17,535 nt of DNA, taken from assembly GCA_017397695.1 (NCBI GenBank), contig JAFQIF010000010.1, positions 1-17,535 of the forward strand, given 5' to 3'. Each line of letters starts with the position of its first letter. Position 1 is the first letter of the stretch. Below, in pieces: positions 8,335 through 16,020 of this stretch. Made by a program: the position numbers and the translations under genes. The notes below the pieces were generated by a model. That model saw only the letters and a list, made by a program, of their open reading frames with translations, was not told where the DNA came from and did not search any database. This DNA is from Clostridia bacterium (lineage in GTDB: Bacteria > Bacillota_A > Clostridia > Christensenellales > Aristaeellaceae).

Positions 8335-8376
8335 CGCTTCCCAAAGATGGGTATATATGGAAAGAAGGCCAGAATA

Positions 8377-9726
8377 ATGACCAAGGATATGACACAGGGA
8401 TCACCTGTCAAGCTGATTCTCGGGTTTGCGCTGCCGCTGCTGGCGGGCATGCTCTTTCAGCAAATGTATAATCTGGTGGATACGATGATCGTCGGCAGGT
8501 TTCTGGGAGTTGCTGCGCTTGCGGGCGTGGGCGCAACCGGTTCAGTCAATTTTCTCGTGCTCGGTTTTTGCATGGGCGTGACCAATGGCTTTGCCATTCC
8601 GGTTGCACAGCGCTTTGGCGCGCGTGAAGAGGGGCGCATGCGTGAGTTTGTGGCCAATGGTATCTATCTTGCAGCTTGGTTTGCCGTGCTGATTACGTCT
8701 GTTACGGTGGTATTCTGCCGCGATATTCTTACGGCGATGGGTACGCCTATGGATTGCTTTGAGCAGTCACATCAGTATATTTCGGTCATTTTTGCAGGCA
8801 TTCCGTTTACGATCCTGTATAACCTGTGCTCGGGTTATCTGCGTTCTCTGGGCGACAGCCGTATGCCGCTGGTCTTCCTGATCATTTCATCCGTTCTCAA
8901 TGTGGCGCTGGATCTGCTTCTGATTCTTGCGTTTGATATGGGCGTGCGCGGCGCGTCCATGGCGACGGTGATCAGCCAGGCTGTATCTGGTCTTCTCTGC
9001 CTGGGATGGATTGCCTGGAAGGTGCCTGCGCTACATGTTTCTGGCCTAGAGTGGCGTGTGCAGAAGGTGCGCATGCAGGAACTGTGTGCCTGCGGCGTGC
9101 CGATGGGTCTGCAGTATTCCATTACGGCAATCGGTTCGGTCATCCTGCAGGTGGCGGTCAATTCGCTGGGCTATCTGGCGGTAGCGGCGATGACTGCTGC
9201 GCTGAAGGTACTCGGCTTCCTCGCGTGTCCGTTTGATGCGCTCGGTTCCACCATGGCGACATATGGCGCGCAGAACGTCGGCGCAGGCCGCTATGACCGT
9301 CTGAATAGGGGGGTGGTGAGCGCATCTGCTATGGGATTTGTGTATACCGCTGCTGCGCTTGCCGTTTCCTGGTTCTTCGGAGAGAATCTTGTGCAGCTCT
9401 TCGTTACGGACGGCGGTGCGGAGATTATCGACATGGCGCAGCAGTACATGGTGGTGCAGGTATTCTTCTATCCGCTGCTCACGCTGGTGAATGTCGTCCG
9501 CTTCACCATTCAGGGTATGGGCTTTTCCGTTTTTGCGGTTATTGCCGGCGTGCTGGAGATGGTTGCCCGCGCGCTTACGGGTGTTTTCCTGGTGCCGATA
9601 CTGGGCTTTACCGGCGTCACGCTGGGCAGCCCGCTGGCTTGGATCATGGCAGATGCATTTCTGATTCCGGCGTATTTTCGGTGCAAAAAGCGCCTGATGG
9701 GGAAGGTGCATCACGCAAAAATCTAA
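8377..9726 (+). CDS. MATE-family multidrug/cation efflux protein
   Basis: 449 residues with about twelve hydrophobic segments, the normal size. ATG at 8377 is chosen because AGAAGG (8363-8368) lies eight bases upstream; an upstream in-frame ATG at 8347 has no ribosome site. The opening GSPVKLILGFALPLLAG followed by QQMYNLVDTMIVGRFLG is the classic MATE N-terminus, and GYLRSLGDSRMPL and NVALDLLLI mark the middle of the first half. MATE proteins export drugs or metabolites using Na+ or H+ gradients; the substrate here is unknown. It is a single-gene unit, divergent from the MBOAT operon, with its own palindrome-covered promoter. Confidence 0.93.
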   Translation: MTKDMTQGSPVKLILGFALPLLAGMLFQQMYNLVDTMIVGRFLGVAALAGVGATGSVNFLVLGFCMGVTNGFAIPVAQRFGAREEGRMREFVANGIYLAAWFAVLITSVTVVFCRDILTAMGTPMDCFEQSHQYISVIFAGIPFTILYNLCSGYLRSLGDSRMPLVFLIISSVLNVALDLLLILAFDMGVRGASMATVISQAVSGLLCLGWIAWKVPALHVSGLEWRVQKVRMQELCACGVPMGLQYSITAIGSVILQVAVNSLGYLAVAAMTAALKVLGFLACPFDALGSTMATYGAQNVGAGRYDRLNRGVVSASAMGFVYTAAALAVSWFFGENLVQLFVTDGGAEIIDMAQQYMVVQVFFYPLLTLVNVVRFTIQGMGFSVFAVIAGVLEMVARALTGVFLVPILGFTGVTLGSPLAWIMADAFLIPAYFRCKKRLMGKVHHAKI

Positions 9727-9785
9727 TAATATACTAGCCTTTTTTGCGAATGCTGAGAAAAATACAAATTTCTTCAATTTTTGTG

Positions 9786-9814
9786 TTGACAAATCGCACG
9801 CGTGGTTGTATAAT
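9786..9814 (+). promoter_or_regulatory. Consensus promoter of tRNA-Ser
   Basis: TTGACA (9786-9791), 17-bp spacer, TATAAT (9809-9814): a perfect consensus promoter, 33 bp upstream of the tRNA, as expected for a strongly expressed stable RNA. Confidence 0.9.
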
Positions 9815-9847
9815 AGGTTTCGCTGATTGAGCAACAGCCAAGCAGAT

Positions 9848-9938
9848 GGAGAGTTGGCTGAGTGGTCTAAGGCGCACGACTGGAAATCGTGTGTGGGCTG
9901 ATACCCCACCTAGGGTTCAAATCCCTAACTCTCCGCCA
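9848..9938 (+). tRNA. tRNA-Ser (anticodon GGA), 3' end supplied by the integrated element
   Basis: A 91-nt class II tRNA. The acceptor stem GGAGAGT pairs fully with ACTCTCC. The anticodon arm is CACGA-CTGGAAA-TCGTG, giving anticodon GGA. A long variable arm (GTGGG/CCCAC) is typical of tRNA-Ser, the T arm is TAGGG-TTCAAAT-CCCTA, the discriminator base is G (9935), and CCA is encoded (9936-9938). From about 9875 onward the sequence repeats at 14204-14264, where CCA is replaced by ACA. The gene is therefore a hybrid of a chromosomal 5' half and an element-derived 3' half that restores an intact tRNA. Confidence 0.97.
9875..9935 (+). repeat. Left attachment repeat (att) in tRNA-Ser
   Basis: 61 bp matching 14204-14264 at 60 of 61 positions; the single difference is C9910 versus A14239, between the variable arm and T stem. 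The repeat covers the anticodon arm to the discriminator base, a common target of tyrosine recombinases. Confidence 0.92.
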
Positions 9939-9960
9939 AGCCATGATGGGAAACCATCAA

Positions 9961-9999
9961 ACCCGTTCAGGTCTCGACCACCTGAGCGGGTCTTTTTTT
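9961..9999 (+). terminator. Intrinsic terminator after tRNA-Ser, inside the element
   Basis: ACCCGTTCAGG (9961-9971) pairs with CCTGAGCGGGT (9981-9991) over 11 bp with one G-T pair and a 9-nt loop, followed by seven T. It ends the tRNA transcript. Just before it, TGATGG-GAAA-CCATCA (9944-9959) forms a small tetraloop hairpin. It is element DNA that replaces the chromosomal terminator now at 14268-14298. Confidence 0.88.
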
Positions 10000-10059
10000 A
10001 TGCTGTGCCTCGACCGCACAGCACAACGCACGATCAACCCCGTGCCTCCTTTCTGCGGC

Positions 10060-10254
10060 TTATGCGCCGCGCTTCGTCAAGTACTCTTCCAACGCTCTGA
10101 TGACCACATCCGTGATCGTCAGCATCGATCCCTCTACGTAGGCCTTAAGTCTGGCATTCAGATCTAGCGGGATCCTCGCTGCGATCCGCTTTGTGAAAGC
10201 CGTTTCCTCCGTCCACTCTCTGGGCGTTGGCGTCTTCCGTGCTCTGCTGGCCAT
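10060..10254 (-). CDS. Small ribbon-helix-helix (CopG/Arc-like) DNA-binding protein
   Basis: 64 residues. The start is set at ATG 10254 because GGAAGGAGGT lies seven bases upstream; an in-frame start 11 codons earlier would bury this site. Residues 1-25 are basic. Residues 26-61 read AARIPLDLNARLKAYVE then LTITDVVIRALEEYL, the beta strand plus two helices of an RHH fold with a regular hydrophobic pattern. Such proteins bind DNA as dimers and act as repressors, antitoxins or plasmid copy/partition regulators. There is no toxin-like gene beside it, so an element regulator is the better guess. A likely promoter is at 10290-10318, and its own operator may lie there. It is the leftmost gene of the element. 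Confidence 0.78.
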   Translation of the reverse strand: MASRARKTPTPREWTEETAFTKRIAARIPLDLNARLKAYVEGSMLTITDVVIRALEEYLTKRGA

Positions 10255-10289
10255 GTTCTGCACCTCCTTCCGGGATAATTGTTGCACAC

Positions 10290-10318
10290 ATCATATCACG
10301 GAGCAGGAAGAAGCGCAA
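10290..10318 (-). promoter_or_regulatory. Likely promoter of the ribbon-helix-helix gene
   Basis: On the minus strand TTGCGC (10313-10318), 17-bp spacer, TATGAT (10290-10295), about 35 bp from the start codon. The -10 is good, the -35 only partial. Confidence 0.5.
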
Positions 10319-10429
10319 GACCCAATCTGCAAAATGGCGCGAAATTTGCCGTCTGAGAGCGTTTCTGATGGGGTAGGTAAGGGAATCACCCGTCCGACTC
10401 CGTGAAAATCGCTCTGAGAGGCCGTCAGG

Positions 10430-11150
10430 AGGGGAGAACGGACACAACCGACGCCCGCCTTCGCCTGTGCCTCGCGCCTCGCCGCCCCCGCCTGTTGCCG
10501 CCCGCCGTCTCCTCGCCTCGATCGCGGCCCGCCGTCGCTCTCGTTGGCGTCAGCGAAGAGGGCAGAGGATAAGCCGCGCGGCGGTCTGCTCCTCGGCTCG
10601 TCGCCTACGCTAGGCGGCGGCGTGGCCTTCGGTCGCTCTGCCCGCTCTCCGGCGCGCTGCTGATCATACCTCCGATCGTCACTGCCGGCGGGCGCGCGCC
10701 CTTGGCTCCTGCGCCCTGGCTTGGCTGCCGCTCCTATGGGTCGCTTTGCCGATGCTTCCTCTCGGCGCGTCGGCGTAGTTGTGCGCTCCCGCTTCCGGGG
10801 CCCGCCCCCCTCGTGCCAAGTCTGTCGCCTTGCTCTTGTTGGCGTCGCCCCCCCGCTGCGGGCCCACCTCGCCCGCAGCGGGTTTTTGTTCTCCGCTTCG
10901 CTGCGCGCCTCGGGCGGCCGCCTCCCGCCCTCGCCCGCGGGGGCCAGCAGGCCACTCCCGCGGGGCTTGCACAAGCGCACGGGGGGCTTTTCGCCCCGGC
11001 TCGCGGACGTGGGTTTGCTTGCGGCTCCGCTTCGCTGCGCGTCCGGTTCGCTGCGGCGCTCTCGCCTCCGCTTCGCGCCTTGCGCTCCGGCCCTTGCCGC
11101 GTCCCGTGCGCCCCCGCTTCGCCGGTCGCCCGGGCCGGTTGGTGTATCAG
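10430..11150. other. Very GC-rich, strand-biased tract without a credible gene
   Basis: About 720 bp, strongly pyrimidine-rich on the + strand and far richer in GC than its surroundings. Several frames on both strands are open for 150-296 codons, as expected when stop codons are rare. The translations are low-complexity (Arg/Ala/Gly/Pro/Glu on -, Arg/Pro/Ser/Ala on +) with no domain or good ribosome site. It contains an intrinsic terminator (10852-10887), a 17-bp direct repeat CTCCGCTTCGCTGCGCG (10891-10907 and 11025-11041) and short hairpins. It could be a structured RNA locus, a degenerate region, or a disordered basic protein on the minus strand. I assign no function. Confidence 0.6.
10852..10887 (+). 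terminator. Intrinsic terminator embedded in the GC-rich tract
   Basis: CCCGCTGCGGGC (10852-10863) pairs perfectly with GCCCGCAGCGGG (10871-10882), 12 bp of nearly all G-C, with a 7-nt loop, then TTTTT (10883-10887). The direction is rightward. No protein gene ends here, so it may end a non-coding transcript from the left part of the tract. Confidence 0.65.
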
Positions 11151-11176
11151 GTTCACGGTAGGGAACGAGGGAATGA

Positions 11177-11249
11177 AACACAAAAGGCGCCTGCAGTCAA
11201 GGGTACCCTCCGGCGCTGCGCGCCCTTGACAGCAGGAGCCTTTTGTGTT
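11177..11249. repeat. Large 27-bp hairpin upstream of the SLOG gene
   Basis: The arms 11177-11203 and 11223-11249 are inverted copies matching at 25 of 27 positions (outer part AACACAAAAGG / CCTTTTGTGTT, inner part GTCAAGGG / CCCTTGAC), with a 19-nt loop. It is too long and too distant from a gene end for an ordinary terminator. It could be a mobile-hairpin relic, a recombination site or part of the leader RNA of the SLOG gene. Confidence 0.75.
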
Positions 11250-11261
11250 CTCCCGCGATCA

Positions 11262-11302
11262 AGTTGGCGGCGCCCTCCGCTCTGCGGAGGTTCCCGCCAA
11301 CT
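11262..11302 (+). promoter_or_regulatory. Nested hairpin sequestering the only strong ribosome site before the SLOG gene
   Basis: The outer stem is AGTTGGCGG (11262-11270) / CCGCCAACT (11294-11302). The inner stem is CCTCCGC (11274-11280) / GCGGAGG (11284-11290) with loop TCT. Both are perfect. The inner stem buries GGAGG (11286-11290), the best Shine-Dalgarno match before the gene, although it stands 18 bases from ATG 11309, farther than normal. Confidence 0.55.
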
Positions 11303-11308
11303 CGAATC

Positions 11309-11680
11309 ATGGGGGTGCGTGCTGTGTTCCGTCTCGTCGTCGCTGGTTCTCGCTCGTTCGCCGATTATGATCGGCTGGCCGCCGATCTGGATCGGCTCCT
11401 CGCTCGACGGCTCCCCGCCGTCGAGATCGTCTGCGGGGACTGCCCCTCCGGGGCAGACGCGCTCGCTGTCCGCTATGCGCGTTCGCGGGGTCTCGCGCTC
11501 CGCCTGTTCCCCGCCGATTGGGCCGCCTATGGCCGCTCCGCTGGCCCCATCCGCAACAGGGCCATGGCCGAATACGGCCACGCCCTGGTTGCGTATTGGG
11601 ACGGTCGCTCCCGCGGCACGGCGTCCATGATCGGCGCGGCCCAGGCTCGCGGTCTGCGGGTGGTCGTGCGCCGCTTCTAG
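11309..11680 (+). CDS. SLOG-superfamily protein, DUF2493 (YspA-like)
   Basis: 123 residues. The family pattern is plain: VAGSRSF (11-17), GDCPSGAD (43-50), FPADWAAYGRSAGPIRN (67-83) and YWDGRSRGT (96-104), ending with a short beta strand, RGLRVVVRRF. These are the nucleotide-phosphate loops of a Rossmann-like SLOG fold. SLOG proteins bind or process nucleotide-derived ligands, and several families occur in conflict and signalling systems; the exact role of DUF2493 is unknown to me. ATG 11309 is taken as start, but GTG 11324, six bases after GGGGGTG, would begin MFRLVVAGSR and fits the family equally well. It is the only rightward cargo gene, is GC-rich like the tract before it, and has a hairpin-filled leader. 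Confidence 0.85.
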   Translation: MGVRAVFRLVVAGSRSFADYDRLAADLDRLLARRLPAVEIVCGDCPSGADALAVRYARSRGLALRLFPADWAAYGRSAGPIRNRAMAEYGHALVAYWDGRSRGTASMIGAAQARGLRVVVRRF

Positions 11681-11691
11681 CGCCGCCCAGC

Positions 11692-11739
11692 CCAACAATC
11701 CTGTGCTTTCTCCAACGATAGATCTACCGAGATTGTTGG
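11692..11739 (+). repeat. Inverted repeat after the SLOG gene
   Basis: CCAACAATC (11692-11700) and GATTGTTGG (11731-11739) are perfect inverted copies 30 bp apart, starting 11 bp after the SLOG stop; an overlapping TCCAAC/GTTGGA pair offers a second folding. No T-tract follows. It may be a 3' RNA structure. Nearby, ATTATC-GT-GATAAT (11760-11773) is a perfect short palindrome of unknown meaning. Confidence 0.45.
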
Positions 11740-11818
11740 AATTATAGCGTTTAATGCAAATTATCGTGATAATTCCTCTCGTTTTCGACTCAAGCGTTGC
11801 GAAAATGTTTCACTTAAC

Positions 11819-11851
11819 AAAAAAGTGCAGGTCGGCTCTTCGATCCTGCAC
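11819..11851 (-). terminator. Intrinsic terminator of the XRE-Lar-Cys operon
   Basis: On the minus strand GTGCAGG (11845-11851) pairs with CCTGCAC (11825-11831), extended by TCG/CGA inside, followed by six T (11819-11824). It lies seven bases after the stop of the last gene. Confidence 0.8.
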
Positions 11852-11857
11852 AATGCT

Positions 11858-12082
11858 TTAGCTCTTTTTCTGGTGGTTCTGGTGGTTTCGGTGTTGGTAT
11901 ATCGTTCCCTTGCGGCCGTTGGCCACGTAGTGAACGTAGCGCTTCCAGCACCGCTTGCAGGCGGTACCGTCGTCCACGTCCTCGATTTTGCATAGCTGCG
12001 TGCCCGCCTCCGGCGGGCATTCGTCATCAAGAATCATCATCGCACAGCCCAGCAGGCTGGGCTTGGTCTTCGCTTCGGTCAT
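11858..12082 (-). CDS. Small cysteine-rich protein, phage/island type
   Basis: 74 residues. I do not recognise a named family. Cys22, Cys31, Cys42 and Cys45 (the last two as CKRC) could bind one zinc ion, like small zinc-ribbon proteins encoded in early regions of phages. The C-terminal 18 residues are basic and His/Gln/Asn-rich. The ATG overlaps the stop of the Lar-like gene upstream (ATGA, 12079-12082), so translation is probably coupled. A terminator comes seven bases after its stop. The overlap, the Cys spacing and the terminator support a real gene. Confidence 0.65.
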   Translation of the reverse strand: MTEAKTKPSLLGCAMMILDDECPPEAGTQLCKIEDVDDGTACKRCWKRYVHYVANGRKGTIYQHRNHQNHQKKS

Positions 12083-12357
12083 GCGCCTCCTCCGCCGCGC
12101 AATTCTATTGCGCTGTTCCAGTGCTCAGCCGCTTGCTCTCTGGCCCTGTTCAGCCCGGGGAGCAGACTTTCTCCGTACTCTCTGCCCGACGCTTTGCCAT
12201 CAAAGTATATCCACGGCCCGGTCAGCTTGCAGACGTCGCATTCCACACGCAGCGCCGGATCTGGCCATGCTGGCCATACCAGCACGATCGGCTGCCCTCC
12301 GCAGCAGGGGCATGGGATCAGCCTGATATCGACATCCTGTCTCCGATCAGGCAACAT
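12079..12357 (-). CDS. Lar-like (restriction alleviation family) zinc protein
   Basis: 92 residues. ATG at 12357 is chosen because GGAGGT lies seven bases upstream; an ATG at 12375 has no such site. LIPCPCCGGQP (14-23) and VECDVCKLTG (38-47) give a four-Cys zinc ribbon (Cys16, Cys19, Cys40, Cys43), and EHWN (78-81) near the end is the A-x-x-x-W-N helix usual in Lar-like proteins. Rac-prophage Lar of E. coli modulates type I restriction; many relatives in phages are annotated only by similarity, so an anti-restriction role is inferred. It overlaps the XRE gene by 11 bp and the Cys-rich gene by 4 bp. Confidence 0.72.
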   Translation of the reverse strand: MLPDRRQDVDIRLIPCPCCGGQPIVLVWPAWPDPALRVECDVCKLTGPWIYFDGKASGREYGESLLPGLNRAREQAAEHWNSAIELRGGGGA

Positions 12358-12607
12358 TGTCCGCACCTCCAGCAATCCAGCCCATCACGGCCCTCGGATC
12401 GTATCGCTTGATTTCACAGAGAACCAGGTTGCTGCCGACGTCCGGCAGCATCCTGCTTTCAGGAGATTCCCACCTGGCTACGGTGCCTCTGCTTACGCCG
12501 CATATCCTCGCGGTGCTGGTCTGACTCATGCCCAATACCTGCCGTCTCAGGTATCGCCATCTCGTCTTGACCTTCAGGCGGATTCTTTCCACCCTCTTTC
12601 GATCCAT
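12347..12607 (-). CDS. XRE/Cro-type helix-turn-helix regulator
   Basis: 86 residues. Residues 1-22 are very basic (RKR, RIRLKVKTRWR). Residues 27-48 read MSQTSTARICGVSRGTVARWES, a standard helix-turn-helix of the XRE/Cro class, followed by a Pro-containing linker and a short helix ending in AVMGWIAGG. It is the first gene of a three-gene leftward unit transcribed from an extended -10 promoter overlapped by a LexA-like box. It may be the element's repressor or activator, and the palindromes at 12808-12940 are candidate targets. Whether it controls excision cannot be seen. Confidence 0.8.
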   Translation of the reverse strand: MDRKRVERIRLKVKTRWRYLRRQVLGMSQTSTARICGVSRGTVARWESPESRMLPDVGSNLVLCEIKRYDPRAVMGWIAGGADNVA

Positions 12608-12631
12608 GCCTCTCTCACCTTCCCATGCAGT

Positions 12632-12640
12632 ATTATACCA
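12632..12640 (-). promoter_or_regulatory. Extended -10 promoter of the XRE-Lar-Cys operon
   Basis: On the minus strand TGGTATAAT, an extended -10 element, 25 bp upstream of the XRE start. The -35 position (AGAACA) is poor, which fits an extended -10 type. Confidence 0.65.
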
Positions 12641-12646
12641 TATTTC

Positions 12647-12660
12647 CGAACATTTGTTCT
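12647..12660 (-). promoter_or_regulatory. LexA-like SOS box over the XRE operon promoter
   Basis: CGAACATTTGTTCT on the + strand matches the Gram-positive LexA box CGAAC-N4-GTTCG at every fixed position but the last. It lies 9 bp upstream of the -10, covering the -35 and spacer, where a repressor would block transcription. If real, the operon is induced by DNA damage. Confidence 0.6.
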
Positions 12661-12807
12661 CATAAATTTTCCCGTAATCGCAGAAACACGACCGGGTACG
12701 TGTCTTTTTTTTGCCCCTTATCCATGCCGTTTGCGTTCGGATATGGGGAATTGTTAAATCCTGATGGATGTATAGTGCTCTGTCTATTCAGCCGCCGCCG
12801 TTCCTAT

Positions 12808-12940
12808 CCGGCCAAATTGGCCGGGTAGAGTAGTAGCTGCTAATCTTAAGAGTATTTGAGATACGTATTATACTAGGCGGCCACTGTGGCCGGATTATAA
12901 CCCGGCCACGCTGGCCGGATAGACGTGACAATTTGGCCGG
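12808..12940. repeat. Palindrome array CCGGCCA-N3-TGGCCGG (iteron/operator-like)
   Basis: Two full 17-bp palindromes lie at 12808-12824 and 12902-12918, and a copy with one changed base at 12877-12893. A half site TTGGCCGG lies at 12933-12940, two bases before the end of the RepA_N-like gene. Starts are 69 and 25 bp apart, and an AT-rich stretch (12837-12875) lies between the first two. Several also carry ATTAT or TATAA next to the outer GG. This may be a replication origin for the RepA-like protein or operators for the XRE protein. The rest of the 12608-12941 gap contains the promoter and LexA box described separately, and a weak hairpin with eight T near 12709. Confidence 0.7.
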
Positions 12941-12941
12941 A

Positions 12942-13292
12942 TTATTGATTTCTCAGCGCATCCGTGATAGCCTCATGAAGGAAATATCTGTTCGATGCTT
13001 TATACGCTGCCTTGCGCCACCACACAAGGCCGTCGTCGTGCAGTTGCTTCAGAGATCTTCTCACCGTCCTCTCTCCAACGCCGATCTGATCCGCCAGTTC
13101 GGCGTGAGAGAAGACACAATAAACCCGCTCTTCCTGTGGATCATACCACTTGGTCCCAGTTGGATCACCGATCAGGTTGTAATTGCTCAGCCGGATCCGG
13201 TTATACAGCGCGCCGATCACAGCGCGCGTGATCAGGTCATAGTCCTTGAATAGTCCCTCCGGCAATGGAATCAGCATATACTTTTGTGCCAT
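12942..13292 (-). CDS. Stand-alone RepA_N-like winged-helix protein (replication initiator or regulator)
   Basis: 116 residues. YMLIPLPEGLFKDYDLITR (5-23), NRIRLSNYN (31-39), ERVYCVFSHAELADQIGVG (55-73), RTVRRSLKQLHDDGLVWW (75-92) and ASNRYFL (99-105) follow, in order, the N-terminal winged-helix domain of RepA_N-type plasmid initiators. Those proteins are usually about 300-400 residues; here only the DNA-binding domain exists, with a clean stop. Residues 60-105 are the winged helix. It could start replication with a host or phage partner, or be a regulator derived from an initiator. ATG 13292 has no visible Shine-Dalgarno site. The gene is divergent from the integrase with only 37 bp between start codons, so each promoter must overlap the other gene. 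The palindrome array lies directly after its stop. Confidence 0.75.
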   Translation of the reverse strand: MAQKYMLIPLPEGLFKDYDLITRAVIGALYNRIRLSNYNLIGDPTGTKWYDPQEERVYCVFSHAELADQIGVGERTVRRSLKQLHDDGLVWWRKAAYKASNRYFLHEAITDALRNQ

Positions 13293-13329
13293 GATGGGAT
13301 GGGGAAATCATCATGCGTGAGGTGATATC

Positions 13330-14193
13330 ATGACTTACTCAGAGTGGTTCTCGCTGTATCTGTCCCTGTACAAGCGCAGAATCAAGCCCAAGACGAGAGA
13401 GAGCTACGATCGGCTGCAAGGTCTTCTCGCGCCGATCCTCGGCCCGCTCGACCTGGCAGCCATCACGCCGGATCATATCCAGGCGGCCCTGATCCAGGTC
13501 GAGGAGCAGACGGGCAGCCGGCAAGCGCAGCTGGCCTTCACGCTGCTGAATGGCTGCTTCTCTCGTGCGGTCCGTTCCGGACACATCCAGAAGAATCCAG
13601 TCGAAGCCGTCGACAAGCCAGTCCATCACGCGGCCAAAGGCCGCGCGATCAAGGGTGCAGATTGGCAGCTGCTCAAGCCCGCCATCCTCGAAGACACTGC
13701 CTTCGCCCTGGCTGCCTTCGCCGGGCTTCGCCGCGGCGAGCTGCTAGGGCTTCGGCGTCAGGACGTCGACTTTGACGCCGGATTCATCCACGTCCGGCGT
13801 CAGCTCGTCAGGATCAAAGGCCAGCTCATCGAGCAGACGCCGAAGTCTGAATCTGGTGTGCGTGATGTGCCTATCGCCGTCGAACTGCTGCCGATCCTCA
13901 AGGCTGCCTGCAGGCTGCTACATCCAAAGGCGCGCCTGATCTCAGCGGCTCCAGAGACCATCAACCACCGATGGAAGAAGGTCCAACTGGAGGAGGGGAT
14001 AGAGCAGCCGTATCGGCTGCACGATCTCCGGCACACCTATGCTACCCGCTTAGTGGCTGCTGGTGCTCGTCTGGCCGTCGTTCAGTATGCTCTTGGCCAT
14101 AGCTCAATCAAGCTGACCGTGGACACCTACACCCACATTGATGGAGCAGATGCCGCCGAGGATATCAAACGAGTTTCTTCATTGATGCGCTGA
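13330..14193 (+). CDS. Tyrosine recombinase/integrase of the element
   Basis: 287 residues. ATG 13330 follows GAGGTGAT closely. An N-terminal SAM-like core-binding domain (about 1-85) is followed by the catalytic domain with the complete set: Arg134 (GLRRGELLGL), Lys172 (TPKSESGVRD), His231 and Arg234 (LHDLRHTYATR), His257 (LGHSS) and nucleophile Tyr267 (DTYTHI). It lacks the extra N-terminal arm-binding domain of larger Tn916- or lambda-type integrases, making it short, nearer to Xer size. It should integrate and excise the element at the tRNA-Ser repeats, the right one starting 10 bp after its stop. No excisionase is recognisable; the XRE, RHH or Cys-rich protein could fill that role. Confidence 0.95.
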   Translation: MTYSEWFSLYLSLYKRRIKPKTRESYDRLQGLLAPILGPLDLAAITPDHIQAALIQVEEQTGSRQAQLAFTLLNGCFSRAVRSGHIQKNPVEAVDKPVHHAAKGRAIKGADWQLLKPAILEDTAFALAAFAGLRRGELLGLRRQDVDFDAGFIHVRRQLVRIKGQLIEQTPKSESGVRDVPIAVELLPILKAACRLLHPKARLISAAPETINHRWKKVQLEEGIEQPYRLHDLRHTYATRLVAAGARLAVVQYALGHSSIKLTVDTYTHIDGADAAEDIKRVSSLMR

Positions 14194-14203
14194 AAACATT
14201 GCA

Positions 14204-14264
14204 CACGACTGGAAATCGTGTGTGGGCTGATACCCCACATAGGGTTCAAATCCCTAACTCTCCG
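14204..14264 (+). repeat. Right attachment repeat (displaced tRNA-Ser 3' half)
   Basis: Same 61 bp as 9875-9935 with A14239 for C. It is followed by ACA where the tRNA has CCA, and then by a terminator. It is not a functional tRNA, since the 5' acceptor strand and D arm are absent; it is the original chromosomal 3' end displaced by integration. Confidence 0.92.
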
Positions 14265-14267
14265 ACA

Positions 14268-14298
14268 AAGAGCTTCGAGTTTTATCGAAGCTCTTTTT
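14268..14298 (+). terminator. Original chromosomal terminator of tRNA-Ser
   Basis: AAGAGCTTCGA (14268-14278) pairs perfectly with TCGAAGCTCTT (14285-14295) with a 6-nt loop, followed by more T. Before insertion it would have ended the tRNA transcript; now it ends read-through from the integrase. Confidence 0.88.
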
Positions 14299-14473: not shown

Positions 14474-15781
14474 TCAATGATACTCAGGCAGCCAGCCCTT
14501 GTGCGCATCAATCAGCGCATCGCACAGCGCAACGATGTCGTCGATGGAGAGCTCGCTCTGCAGGTGAGGATCCATCATCGCAGCCTGATAAATGCATTCC
14601 TTCTTCAGGGTGCGAGCGGCTTCGAGCGTCAGCAGCTGCACATTGATGTTCGTGCGGTTGAGCGCAGCACAAATCTCCGGCAGATCGCCCACATGGGTCG
14701 GCGTCACGCCGCTTGCATCCACCAGACAGGGGACTTCGACCACGGCGTTTTGCGGCAGATTGGTGATCAGTCCATTGTTGAGCACGTTGCCGCCGATCTT
14801 GTAGGGCTTGTCGGTGACCATGGCTTCGATGATGTAGCTGGCGTACTCATGCGTGCGCTCGTGGCTCAGGTTCGGGTTCTCGGTCAGCGTCTTGCTGCGG
14901 GTTTTCCAATCTTCAATTTGCTTAATGCAGCGGCGCGGATACTCGTCCAGCGGAATATTGAAGCGGTCGATCAGCTCCGGATACTTGTCCTTGATGAAGA
15001 AGGGCATGTATTCCGCGTTGTGCTCGCTGGATTCGGTTACGTAGTAGCCAAAGCGCTTCATGATCTCCAGACGCACCATGTTGTCGTGCTTCTCGGTGAG
15101 CGCGGCGGCCTTCGCCTTGATTTCGGGATAGAGGTCGCGTCCATTCTTGGTGATTTCCAGCAGCCAGGCCATGTGGTTGATGCCGGCTATCTTGGTCTGC
15201 ACAGCAGGGTCATTCTCCATGCCGACAGATTTAAACAGGCTTTCTGCGCACACCTGCACGCTGTGGCACAGGCCAACGGTCTTAACGCTGGTTTCGCGAA
15301 GCATCGCGCCGGTAAGCATGGCCATCGGATTGGTGTAGTTAAGGAACCATGCATTCGGACAAACCGCCTGCATGTCCTCGGCGAAGTCGAGCATCACAGG
15401 AATGGTGCGCAGCGCGCGGAAGATGCCGCCGATGCCCAACGTATCGGCGATCGTCTGACGCAGGCCGAACTTCCTGGGCACTTCAAAATCAATGATCGTG
15501 CATGGATCGTACAGGCCGACCTGAATGGCGTTGACCACGAAATCCGCGCCGCGAAGCGCTTCTCGGCGGTTTTCCACGCCCAGGTAGCTGCGGATGGTCG
15601 CCTCAGCGCCGCAGTTGCGGTTGATGGCGTCGAGCATTTTCTGGGATTCTTCAAGACGCACGGGATCGATGTCATACAGCGCAATATCCAGACCGTGCAG
15701 CACGGGCGTGCACATGCAGTCGCCCAGCACGTTCTTGGCAAATACTGTGGAGCCGGCGCCCATAAACGTTACTTTGATCAT
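14474..15781 (-). CDS. melA: Glycoside hydrolase family 4 protein, alpha-galactosidase (MelA)-like
   Basis: 435 residues. ATG 15781 is preferred over a frame opening at 15892, because AAGGAGT lies about nine bases before it and the family begins here with IKVTFMGAGST. GAGS (8-11) is the NAD-binding loop; LNYTNPM (148-154) is strongly conserved; GLCHSVQ (170-176) supplies the metal-binding Cys172; GINHMAW (200-206) supplies His203. GH4 enzymes need NAD+ and a divalent metal such as Mn2+, and cleave by an oxidation-elimination route in the cytoplasm. The CHSVQ and INHMAW forms are typical of alpha-galactosidases like MelA; an alpha-galacturonidase is the main alternative. It is a single-gene unit with a consensus promoter and its own terminator; no sugar transporter is in view. 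Confidence 0.87.
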   Translation of the reverse strand: MIKVTFMGAGSTVFAKNVLGDCMCTPVLHGLDIALYDIDPVRLEESQKMLDAINRNCGAEATIRSYLGVENRREALRGADFVVNAIQVGLYDPCTIIDFEVPRKFGLRQTIADTLGIGGIFRALRTIPVMLDFAEDMQAVCPNAWFLNYTNPMAMLTGAMLRETSVKTVGLCHSVQVCAESLFKSVGMENDPAVQTKIAGINHMAWLLEITKNGRDLYPEIKAKAAALTEKHDNMVRLEIMKRFGYYVTESSEHNAEYMPFFIKDKYPELIDRFNIPLDEYPRRCIKQIEDWKTRSKTLTENPNLSHERTHEYASYIIEAMVTDKPYKIGGNVLNNGLITNLPQNAVVEVPCLVDASGVTPTHVGDLPEICAALNRTNINVQLLTLEAARTLKKECIYQAAMMDPHLQSELSIDDIVALCDALIDAHKGWLPEYH

Positions 15782-15847
15782 AAATGAAAGACTCCTTCGC
15801 AGTCGATAGGGAACAGAGGCTTGCGTGAACCTGAATGAACTACAAAA

Positions 15848-15876
15848 ATTATAGCAATTACATATCTTTCTGTCAA
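15848..15876 (-). promoter_or_regulatory. Consensus promoter of the GH4 gene
   Basis: On the minus strand TTGACA (15871-15876), 17-bp spacer, TATAAT (15848-15853), both perfect. The leader to the start codon is about 60 nt. Confidence 0.88.
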
Positions 15877-16020
15877 TTGCATACGTGCTCAATGCGCTGA
15901 TAAGCGCACAATAACAGGGGAAGATAACAAGGAGATAGAGAGCGCTTCACGCATAAACATGTATGCAAGGCGAGAAGATACATAAATCGTTAAAGATTTG
16001 ACGGAAGAGACTGTATATTG

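What the first reader, a model, noticed from the sequence alone, without database searches (positions are those of the whole stretch)
9875..14264. Minimal tRNA-Ser island combining a recombinase, a lone RepA_N-like domain, Lar-like and SLOG proteins
Seen: 61-bp direct repeats 4,329 bp apart, a complete tyrosine recombinase at one end, and only seven other small genes, mostly DNA-binding or zinc proteins. No capsid, packaging or transfer genes exist. Known: phage satellites combine an integrase, divergent regulators, a replication gene and host-interference cargo. Inference: this is a very small satellite or plasmid-derived island of a type I cannot name, with a possible anti-restriction gene (Lar) and a possible nucleotide-sensing gene (SLOG).
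Basis: partly seen in the sequence, partly recalled or inferred. Interest (0 to 1): 0.75.

Follow-up and report, generated by a model that had tools for sequence, protein, structure and literature searches.

The report
Tiny tRNA island with half initiator
A 4.3-kb piece of mobile DNA in a gut bacterium's serine-tRNA gene belongs to a family of very small islands that carry little more than an integrase, one half of a plasmid-type replication starter with its likely binding sites, and a promoter that DNA damage probably switches on, which suggests a very small parasite of phages.

Summary
A 65/68-identical tRNA-Ser(GGA) repeat bounds a 4,329-bp block with an intact tyrosine recombinase at one end. 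Two relatives have the same tRNA followed about 290 bp later by the PEP carboxykinase gene (empty site); others carry related islands.

Seven related islands were found in searches of 308 genomes of one family and 396 of its order, overlapping sets. Four of the eight, window included, have both ends: 4.3, 4.8, 3.0 and 2.4 kb. The gene divergent from int is replication-type in all eight: a lone RepA_N N-terminal domain in five, a DnaD-like domain (below curated cut-offs) in three. In the five, palindromic boxes follow the gene directly, each island with its own sequence, as Rep boxes follow the N-terminal domain in plasmid pSK41; the plasmid's essential C-terminal domain is absent.

Five of eight islands carry one LexA-type box in front of a gene (chance 0.003-0.006 each), matching host lexA boxes. 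In one it precedes a terminase-small-subunit-like gene.

Best reading: SOS-linked, helper-dependent minimal islands, probably phage satellites. No helper, replication, excision or packaging is shown, and the window island has no recognised packaging gene.

The parts
9848..9938 (+). tRNA-Ser(GGA), intact, at the left end (attL)
   Evidence: ARAGORN; Rfam
9872..9939 (+). left copy of the attachment repeat
   Evidence: 65/68 identical to 14201-14268
10060..10254 (-). 64-aa ribbon-helix-helix protein, at the tRNA end also in L077 and L075
   Evidence: PHROG transcriptional repressor E 2.8e-5 for the longer ORF 10060-10287; 60% and 52% identity in L077 and L075; 19 homologues of 52-71 aa
10400..11240 (.). 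GC-rich (72%), pyrimidine-biased stretch, probably not coding; GC-rich stretches also in L075, L076, L077, L088, L121, L122
11177..11249 (.). 27-bp imperfect inverted repeat; RNA fold of an 85-nt stretch holding it -45.4 kcal/mol
11309..11680 (+). SLOG (YAcAr) protein, 123 aa from the ATG at 11309; cargo, not found in the other seven islands by tblastn
   Evidence: PF10686 E 1.8e-18 on the longer ORF from 11243; (several of those islands incomplete)
11858..12082 (-). 74-aa Cys-rich protein, shared with L076 and L077
12079..12375 (-). Lar-like zinc protein, 98 aa, shared with L076 and L077
   Evidence: PHROG 599 E 7.3e-10; Pfam and NCBIfam below cut-off
12347..12607 (-). 86-aa HTH protein, first gene behind the SOS-type box
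12632..12659 (-). probable SOS-type promoter: LexA-type box (12648-12659) and a TATAAT (12632-12637) read by eye; the consensus promoter scan did not list it
12808..12824 (.). palindromic box 1 (CCGGCCAAATTGGCCGG)
12825..12876 (.). AT-rich spacer (67% AT; top 1.1% of island 52-mers), possible melting site
12877..12945 (.). palindromic boxes 2 (12877-12893), 3 (12902-12918) and a half box reaching the stop codon of the RepA_N gene
12942..13292 (-). 116-aa lone RepA_N-type N-terminal domain
13330..14193 (+). tyrosine recombinase, 287 aa, no matched N-terminal arm-binding domain
14201..14268 (+). right copy of the attachment repeat (attR)

Best explanation
The block is a member, with both ends, of a family of minimal integrating islands (2.4-4.8 kb). 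Shown: int at one end, a tRNA 3'-end repeat at both ends, filled and empty sites in relatives, a replication-type protein divergent from int, and in five of eight islands a LexA-type box in front of a gene. Inferred: DNA damage or phage induction derepresses the cargo operon; int excises the circle; the RepA_N-type domain binds the palindromic boxes at 12808-12945 and bends or opens the AT-rich spacer; because the plasmid-type C-terminal domain is missing, helicase or primase comes from the host or, more likely, from an infecting or induced helper phage; the DNA is then packaged by that helper. It works like a satellite with a half initiator.
For: Discrete element: repeats 65/68; empty sites in L067 and L068; sister islands with both ends L077, L121, L122. 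RepA_N domain. A short family rather than one truncation: 70 of 73 homologues are 97-132 aa, the other three 74-82 (that search cannot list proteins over 1.75 times the query). Boxes directly behind the gene in 5 of 5 RepA_N islands. The four strong RepA_N hits and four of the five int hits at E 1e-40 fall in the same 4 genomes of 308; the other three ints found sit beside DnaD-like proteins. LexA-type boxes in 5 of 8 islands, expected 0.05-0.095 in each of those five; one box of the same type near the start of lexA in 4 of 4 host lexA loci over the family cut-off. L121 has a TerS-like gene behind its box. Literature: PLE RepA_N plus iterons (PMC7145576, PMC8263062, passages); LexA control of SaPI operon I, which holds terS (PMC5052747, passage); [quoted passage not shown]
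Against: No helper, circle, replication or packaging was observed; the window's own genome is not held. I recognised no TerS, primase, cos or pac in the window island (cos/pac not searched). The TerS call rests on one island: PHROG E 1.8e-5, no Pfam or NCBIfam terminase hit (best Pfam is HEAT_2), model pLDDT 73, no Foldseek match at E 0.001. L122, with both ends, has no LexA-type box; of five recA loci only one has such a box; the consensus promoter scan of the window island found no more promoters than chance and not this one; in L077 the box stands before the Lar-like gene, not the HTH gene. IMG/VR scans found no relative of the RepA_N protein or of int. The C-terminal domain that is essential in pSK41 Rep is absent. 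Islands share descent, so their counts are not independent.
Confidence: 0.5

Rival explanations
1. Mobile island that does not replicate: the RepA_N-type protein is a regulator acting at its boxes, controlling the neighbouring operon or int, and the island moves by integrase alone with transformation, generalized transduction or a passing conjugative element.
Against: The best matches by Foldseek E-value and by sequence profile are RepA_N initiators; the boxes sit behind the domain as in pSK41 Rep (PMC5703833, section 14 read); in the window and L074 boxes flank an AT-rich spacer; sister islands have DnaD-like replication proteins in the same slot.
Confidence: 0.25
2. Conjugation-dependent island (IME-like) whose transfer origin lies in the GC-rich stretch or the long hairpin at 11177-11249 and which borrows a relaxase in trans.
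For: Long inverted repeat, a core of which recurs in Rhodopseudomonas plasmid pRPA and in three IMG/VR contigs; an RHH protein of L122 has weak, sub-cut-off matches to mobilisation proteins NikA and MobA; RepA_N genes are linked to recombinases on presumed conjugative transposons (literature passage).
Against: No relaxase family in the scanned window ORFs; BLASTN between islands shows no match over the hairpin; the TerS-like gene in L121 points to phages.
Confidence: 0.15
3. Degraded remnant of a prophage or integrated plasmid that lost most genes.
For: Only half of a Rep protein is present; ORF-poor GC-rich stretch; the RepA_N frame of L074 is interrupted.
Against: Four islands of 2.4-4.8 kb with int, the replication slot and both repeats; int 94% identical at the same site in L076 while the rest has diverged; 73 homologue clusters of the domain.
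Confidence: 0.07

Closest known systems
PLE satellites of Vibrio cholerae (PMC7145576, PMC8263062; passages seen)
   Same: RepA_N-type initiator with iterons; origin sequence changes together with the RepA_N domain; integrated island
   Different: PLE RepA has a C-terminal domain and PLE uses a large serine recombinase; here only the N-terminal domain and a tyrosine recombinase; helper unknown
PICI/SaPI (PMC6092414, PMC5052747; passages seen)
   Different: No pri-rep module found; 2.4-4.8 kb instead of about 15 kb; phage induction unknown
PICMI (PMC10803314; passages seen)
   Same: Minimal gene set; no capsid-remodelling genes found
   Different: PICMI models require int, AlpA, a primase (DUF3987/DUF5906) and fis; PICMI115 is 6,110 bp; no AlpA or primase found here, and the site is tRNA-Ser
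RepA_N plasmids such as pSK41 (PMC5703833, section 14 read)
   Same: N-terminal domain of about 120 residues; Rep boxes directly behind the DNA coding for it; winged-helix fold
   Different: C-terminal domain (DnaG-binding, essential) missing; integrated in tRNA genes

Membership tests
Tyrosine-recombinase genomic island in a tRNA gene | intact tRNA at one end, displaced 3' fragment at the other, integrase inside, empty site in relatives | tested here: met
RepA_N replicon | RepA_N N-terminal winged-helix domain | tested here: met
   by fold and PDB profile; Pfam RepA_N itself is far below cut-off in the window protein (E 0.12, 12.8 of 30 bits)
RepA_N replicon | Rep boxes directly behind the DNA coding for the N-terminal domain | tested here: met
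   palindromic boxes in 5 of 5 islands; binding not tested
RepA_N replicon | C-terminal domain needed for replication | tested here: not met
   protein ends at 116 aa; the four strong genome hits have open frames of 132-165 aa; 70 of 73 homologues 97-132 aa, in a search limited to 0.55-1.75 times the query length
PICI | primase-replication (pri-rep) module | tested here: not met
PICI | no phage structural or lytic genes | tested here: met
PICI | terS or helper cos/pac site | tested here: inconclusive
   none recognised in the window; TerS-like gene in L121 only; cos/pac not searched
PICI | phage-dependent induction and packaging | not testable with these tools
   needs a cultured host and helper
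[quoted passage not shown]
   tyrosine recombinase; lone domain
PICMI | AlpA, DUF3987/DUF5906 primase, site beside fis | tested here: not met
   no such family; site is tRNA-Ser
IME | relaxase gene | tested here: not met
   none among window island ORFs

The most novel reading that the evidence does not exclude
These are the smallest phage satellites known (islands of 2.4-4.8 kb), each encoding only half of a replication initiator: either the origin-binding RepA_N N-terminal domain with its own boxes, or a DnaD-type loader domain. The missing half is taken from the helper phage or host, which ties replication to a helper, and a LexA promoter times the cargo (in one island a terminase small subunit).
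Probability: 0.3. Interest if true: 0.82.

Novelty: new variant of a known kind. Interest (0 to 1): 0.6.

Why it matters
Chromosomal RepA_N genes next to recombinases have been noted before, and the PLE authors suggested that such pairs may mark cryptic phage satellites rather than conjugative transposons (passage in PMC7145576). These islands are compact examples with almost nothing else to confuse the question. If they replicate, they narrow down how little a satellite must encode and how a RepA_N domain starts replication without its C-terminal domain. If they do not, they show an initiator domain turned into a regulator.

Tried and rejected
Scans of the genome collection with the RepA_N alignment and of IMG/VR with the RepA_N protein, its alignment and int found no relatives; the pattern method needs short conserved stretches, and one search did find relatives in genomes, so this is weak absence. 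The second genome scan used the neighbouring GH4 gene to find the host group; the GH4 neighbourhood is not syntenic. Searches with the int alignment at E 1e-50: order 1 of 396 genomes, class 0 of 391. The family search with the single int at E 1e-40 missed G117, which by its handle number belongs to the same 308 genomes and which the alignment found, so other islands may have been missed too. The RepA_N alignment in the order gave 5 of 396 genomes, all with frames of 288-340 aa; the one scanned is RepA_N, E 1.4e-16. Nine of the 13 family genomes are weak hits (E 3e-5 or worse; the weakest of the four kept is 2e-10); they were dropped, several being longer RepA_N-like or regulator frames.

Rejected: prophage remnant; coding function of the GC-rich stretch. 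The hairpin match in R. palustris pRPA and three IMG/VR contigs with its core share a GC-rich stem core; not pursued. PADLOC gave only weak HTH-type hits for two of nine proteins, none for the rest. No plasmid or phage record holds more than the tRNA or a SLOG fragment.

Results against or neutral: lag autocorrelation of the window boxes is not significant (328 of 1000 shuffles as good), that of the other four sets is (0 of 1000); box regions were chosen after seeing them. CRP/NtcA regulators score close to RepA_N, so the fold alone does not decide initiator against regulator. The upstream stretch for L077 was taken before the Lar-like gene because the box lies there. The -35 and -10 elements were read by eye. 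For recA, L108 has its upstream cut by the contig end and L107 an uncertain start; one box in five loci (L107).

Longest-contig lengths of 4280, 4251 and 3343 occur for both RepA_N and RHH homologue clusters, suggesting the two genes lie on the same short contigs; contigs were not read.

Recalled, from no call: the B. subtilis-type LexA consensus and the catalytic residue set of tyrosine recombinases.
Full report
1. The element. tRNA-Ser(GGA) at 9848-9938 is followed by a block whose far end repeats the tRNA 3' part (9872-9939 and 14201-14268; 65 of 68 identical, mismatches at 9874, 9910 and 9936). Int (13330-14193) points at the right repeat. Six further genes are supported: RHH (10060-10254, -), SLOG/YAcAr (11309-11680, +), a Cys-rich 74-aa protein (11858-12082, -), a Lar-like protein (12079-12375, -), an 86-aa HTH protein (12347-12607, -) and a 116-aa winged-helix protein (12942-13292, -). 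The GC-rich stretch 10400-11240 (72% GC, strong T over A) has open frames, but the six scanned have no Pfam match and the one compared has no similarity to its counterpart in L077.

2. Filled and empty sites. The window's genome is not held. A scan with the neighbouring GH4 gene led to related Clostridia (41 loci). Of nine of their genomes searched with window 8347-9938, four hold the MATE gene and tRNA-Ser in the same order (G001, G002, G003, G007). In G001 and G002 the tRNA is followed 288-289 bp later by the PEP carboxykinase gene (PF01293), which in the window lies beyond the island, with no island between. In L069, L070 and L071 no ORF with the recombinase motif was seen downstream of the tRNA, within the 2.0, 9.3 and 11.3 kb held (a motif test only). 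In L076 (G215) a related int (94% identical) lies at the same tRNA fragment beside the PEP carboxykinase gene. So the site is filled in some and empty in others.

3. The family. Searching 308 genomes of the family of G002, the RepA_N-type alignment gave 13 genomes at E 1e-3, four kept as strong (G297, G008, G215, G291; E 1e-36 to 2e-10). Int gave five at E 1e-40: the same four and G122. In 396 genomes of the order, a set that overlaps the first, the int alignment at E 1e-50 gave one genome with two copies (G117); in 391 of the class none. This makes seven related islands: L074, L075, L076, L077, L088, L121, L122. Four of eight (window, L077, L121, L122) have both repeats in hand: 4,329, 4,765, 3,007 and 2,432 bp start to start, in tRNA-Ser(GGA) twice, tRNA-Lys(CTT) and tRNA-Lys(TTT). 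L074 and L088 hold tRNA-Lys-like sequence beyond int. L075 begins at tRNA-Lys(CTT), but its right end was not resolved before the contig stops. Window, L076 and L077 share the order Cys-rich protein, Lar-like, HTH, RepA_N, int; RHH lies at the tRNA end in window, L075 and L077, and L122 has an RHH protein there too. SLOG was not found in the other seven by tblastn, so it looks like cargo. Between window and L076 the right-hand 1 kb is 93-94% identical while the rest has diverged (RepA_N 34%, HTH 45%, Lar 49%), so the islands are mosaic.

5. Boxes. Directly behind the RepA_N gene the window has CCGGCCAAATTGGCCGG-type palindromes at 12808, 12877 and 12902 and a half box at 12928-12945, with a 67% AT spacer between the first and second. 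The same position in L077, L075, L074 and L076 has its own palindromic set at 22-23-bp steps. At least seven of eight arm pairs complementary: three such 17-mers in 161 nt of the window, reached in 0 of 2000 shuffles; likewise 0 for L077, L074 and L076, and 0.04 for L075; the regions were chosen after seeing them. The layout, domain then boxes, is that of pSK41, where the N-terminal 120 residues bind four Rep boxes central in the gene; here the gene stops at the boxes. Box sequence differs with the protein, as RepA_N domain and origin covary in PLE (PMC8263062, passages).

6. SOS control. The window holds exactly one GAACN4GTTC in 17.5 kb, at 12648-12659, 10 nt from a TATAAT in front of the HTH operon. 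L076 has the same spacing. In L121 and L077 the box lies in the spacer of TTGTCA-17-TATAAT and TTGACG-17-TAAGAT; in L075 it precedes TAGAAT (read by eye). Counting GAACN4GTTY, five of eight islands have one box each (expected 0.05-0.095 in those five); L122, L088 and L074 have none, the last two being incomplete. Within 120 nt upstream of the gene concerned the chance is 0.003-0.006 per island. Background: 5 boxes in 130,414 nt of twelve other loci, 0 in 13,114 nt of window flanks. All four lexA loci over the family cut-off (G297, G002, G003, G008) have one GAACN4GTTT near the start of the gene; of five recA loci one has a box. The consensus promoter scan found two sites in the island against 1.6 expected and not this one.

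7. A packaging hint. The gene behind the box in L121 (127 aa) matches PHROG terminase small subunit (E 1.8e-5; five of five aligned rows match, two of them the same protein). Pfam gives only weak HEAT hits and NCBIfam none. Foldseek against viral models has no match at E 0.001; 20 of the 50 rows shown are named terminase small subunit (best E 2.4e-3), on a pLDDT 73 model. In SaPIs operon I, with terS, is LexA-controlled (PMC5052747, passage). No such gene is recognised in the window island.

8. Judgement. That this is a discrete mobile island of a family is close to certain (about 0.95). That the slot is a RepA_N-type N-terminal domain with cognate boxes is likely (0.85). That it replicates with outside help and is spread by phages is inference (0.5). 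It fails defining features of PICI, PLE and PICMI, so I file it under none. Among the titles and abstract starts listed I saw none describing such islands; only openly licensed papers are held. PICMI115 at 6,110 bp is called the smallest satellite element with characterised activity (PMC10803314, passages).

Noticed in passing
window 14474-15892: The GH4 glycosidase gene between attR and the PEP carboxykinase gene is absent from that place in L067, L068 and L076: a second, separate gain beside the island.
   Followed up: partly
window 11177-11249: A 27-bp-arm hairpin whose core (about 50 nt, 86%) recurs in a stretch of the Rhodopseudomonas palustris plasmid pRPA without a listed gene and, as GGCGCTNCGCGCCCTTGAC, inside long hairpins of three IMG/VR contigs.
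   Followed up: partly
window 10400-11240; L075, L076, L077, L088, L121, L122: A GC-rich stretch (66-73% GC) lies between the tRNA end and the replication slot in the seven islands that reach it, T-biased in five of seven; role unknown.
   Followed up: partly
L121 4933-5002: A perfect 35-bp tandem duplicate just inside the left repeat, upstream of the TerS-like gene; could be a packaging or regulatory site.
   Followed up: no
window 13330-14193: The integrase begins at the core-binding domain; no N-terminal arm-binding domain is matched, and its four aligned relatives start at the same place.
   Followed up: no
L074 9702-10049: The RepA_N frame of this island is interrupted by a TGA, so this copy may be inactive or mis-assembled.
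   Followed up: no
L071, L072: One genome (G006) has two contigs that both carry an identical copy of the tRNA-Ser at or near a contig end, as expected if something repeated sits at this tRNA.
   Followed up: no
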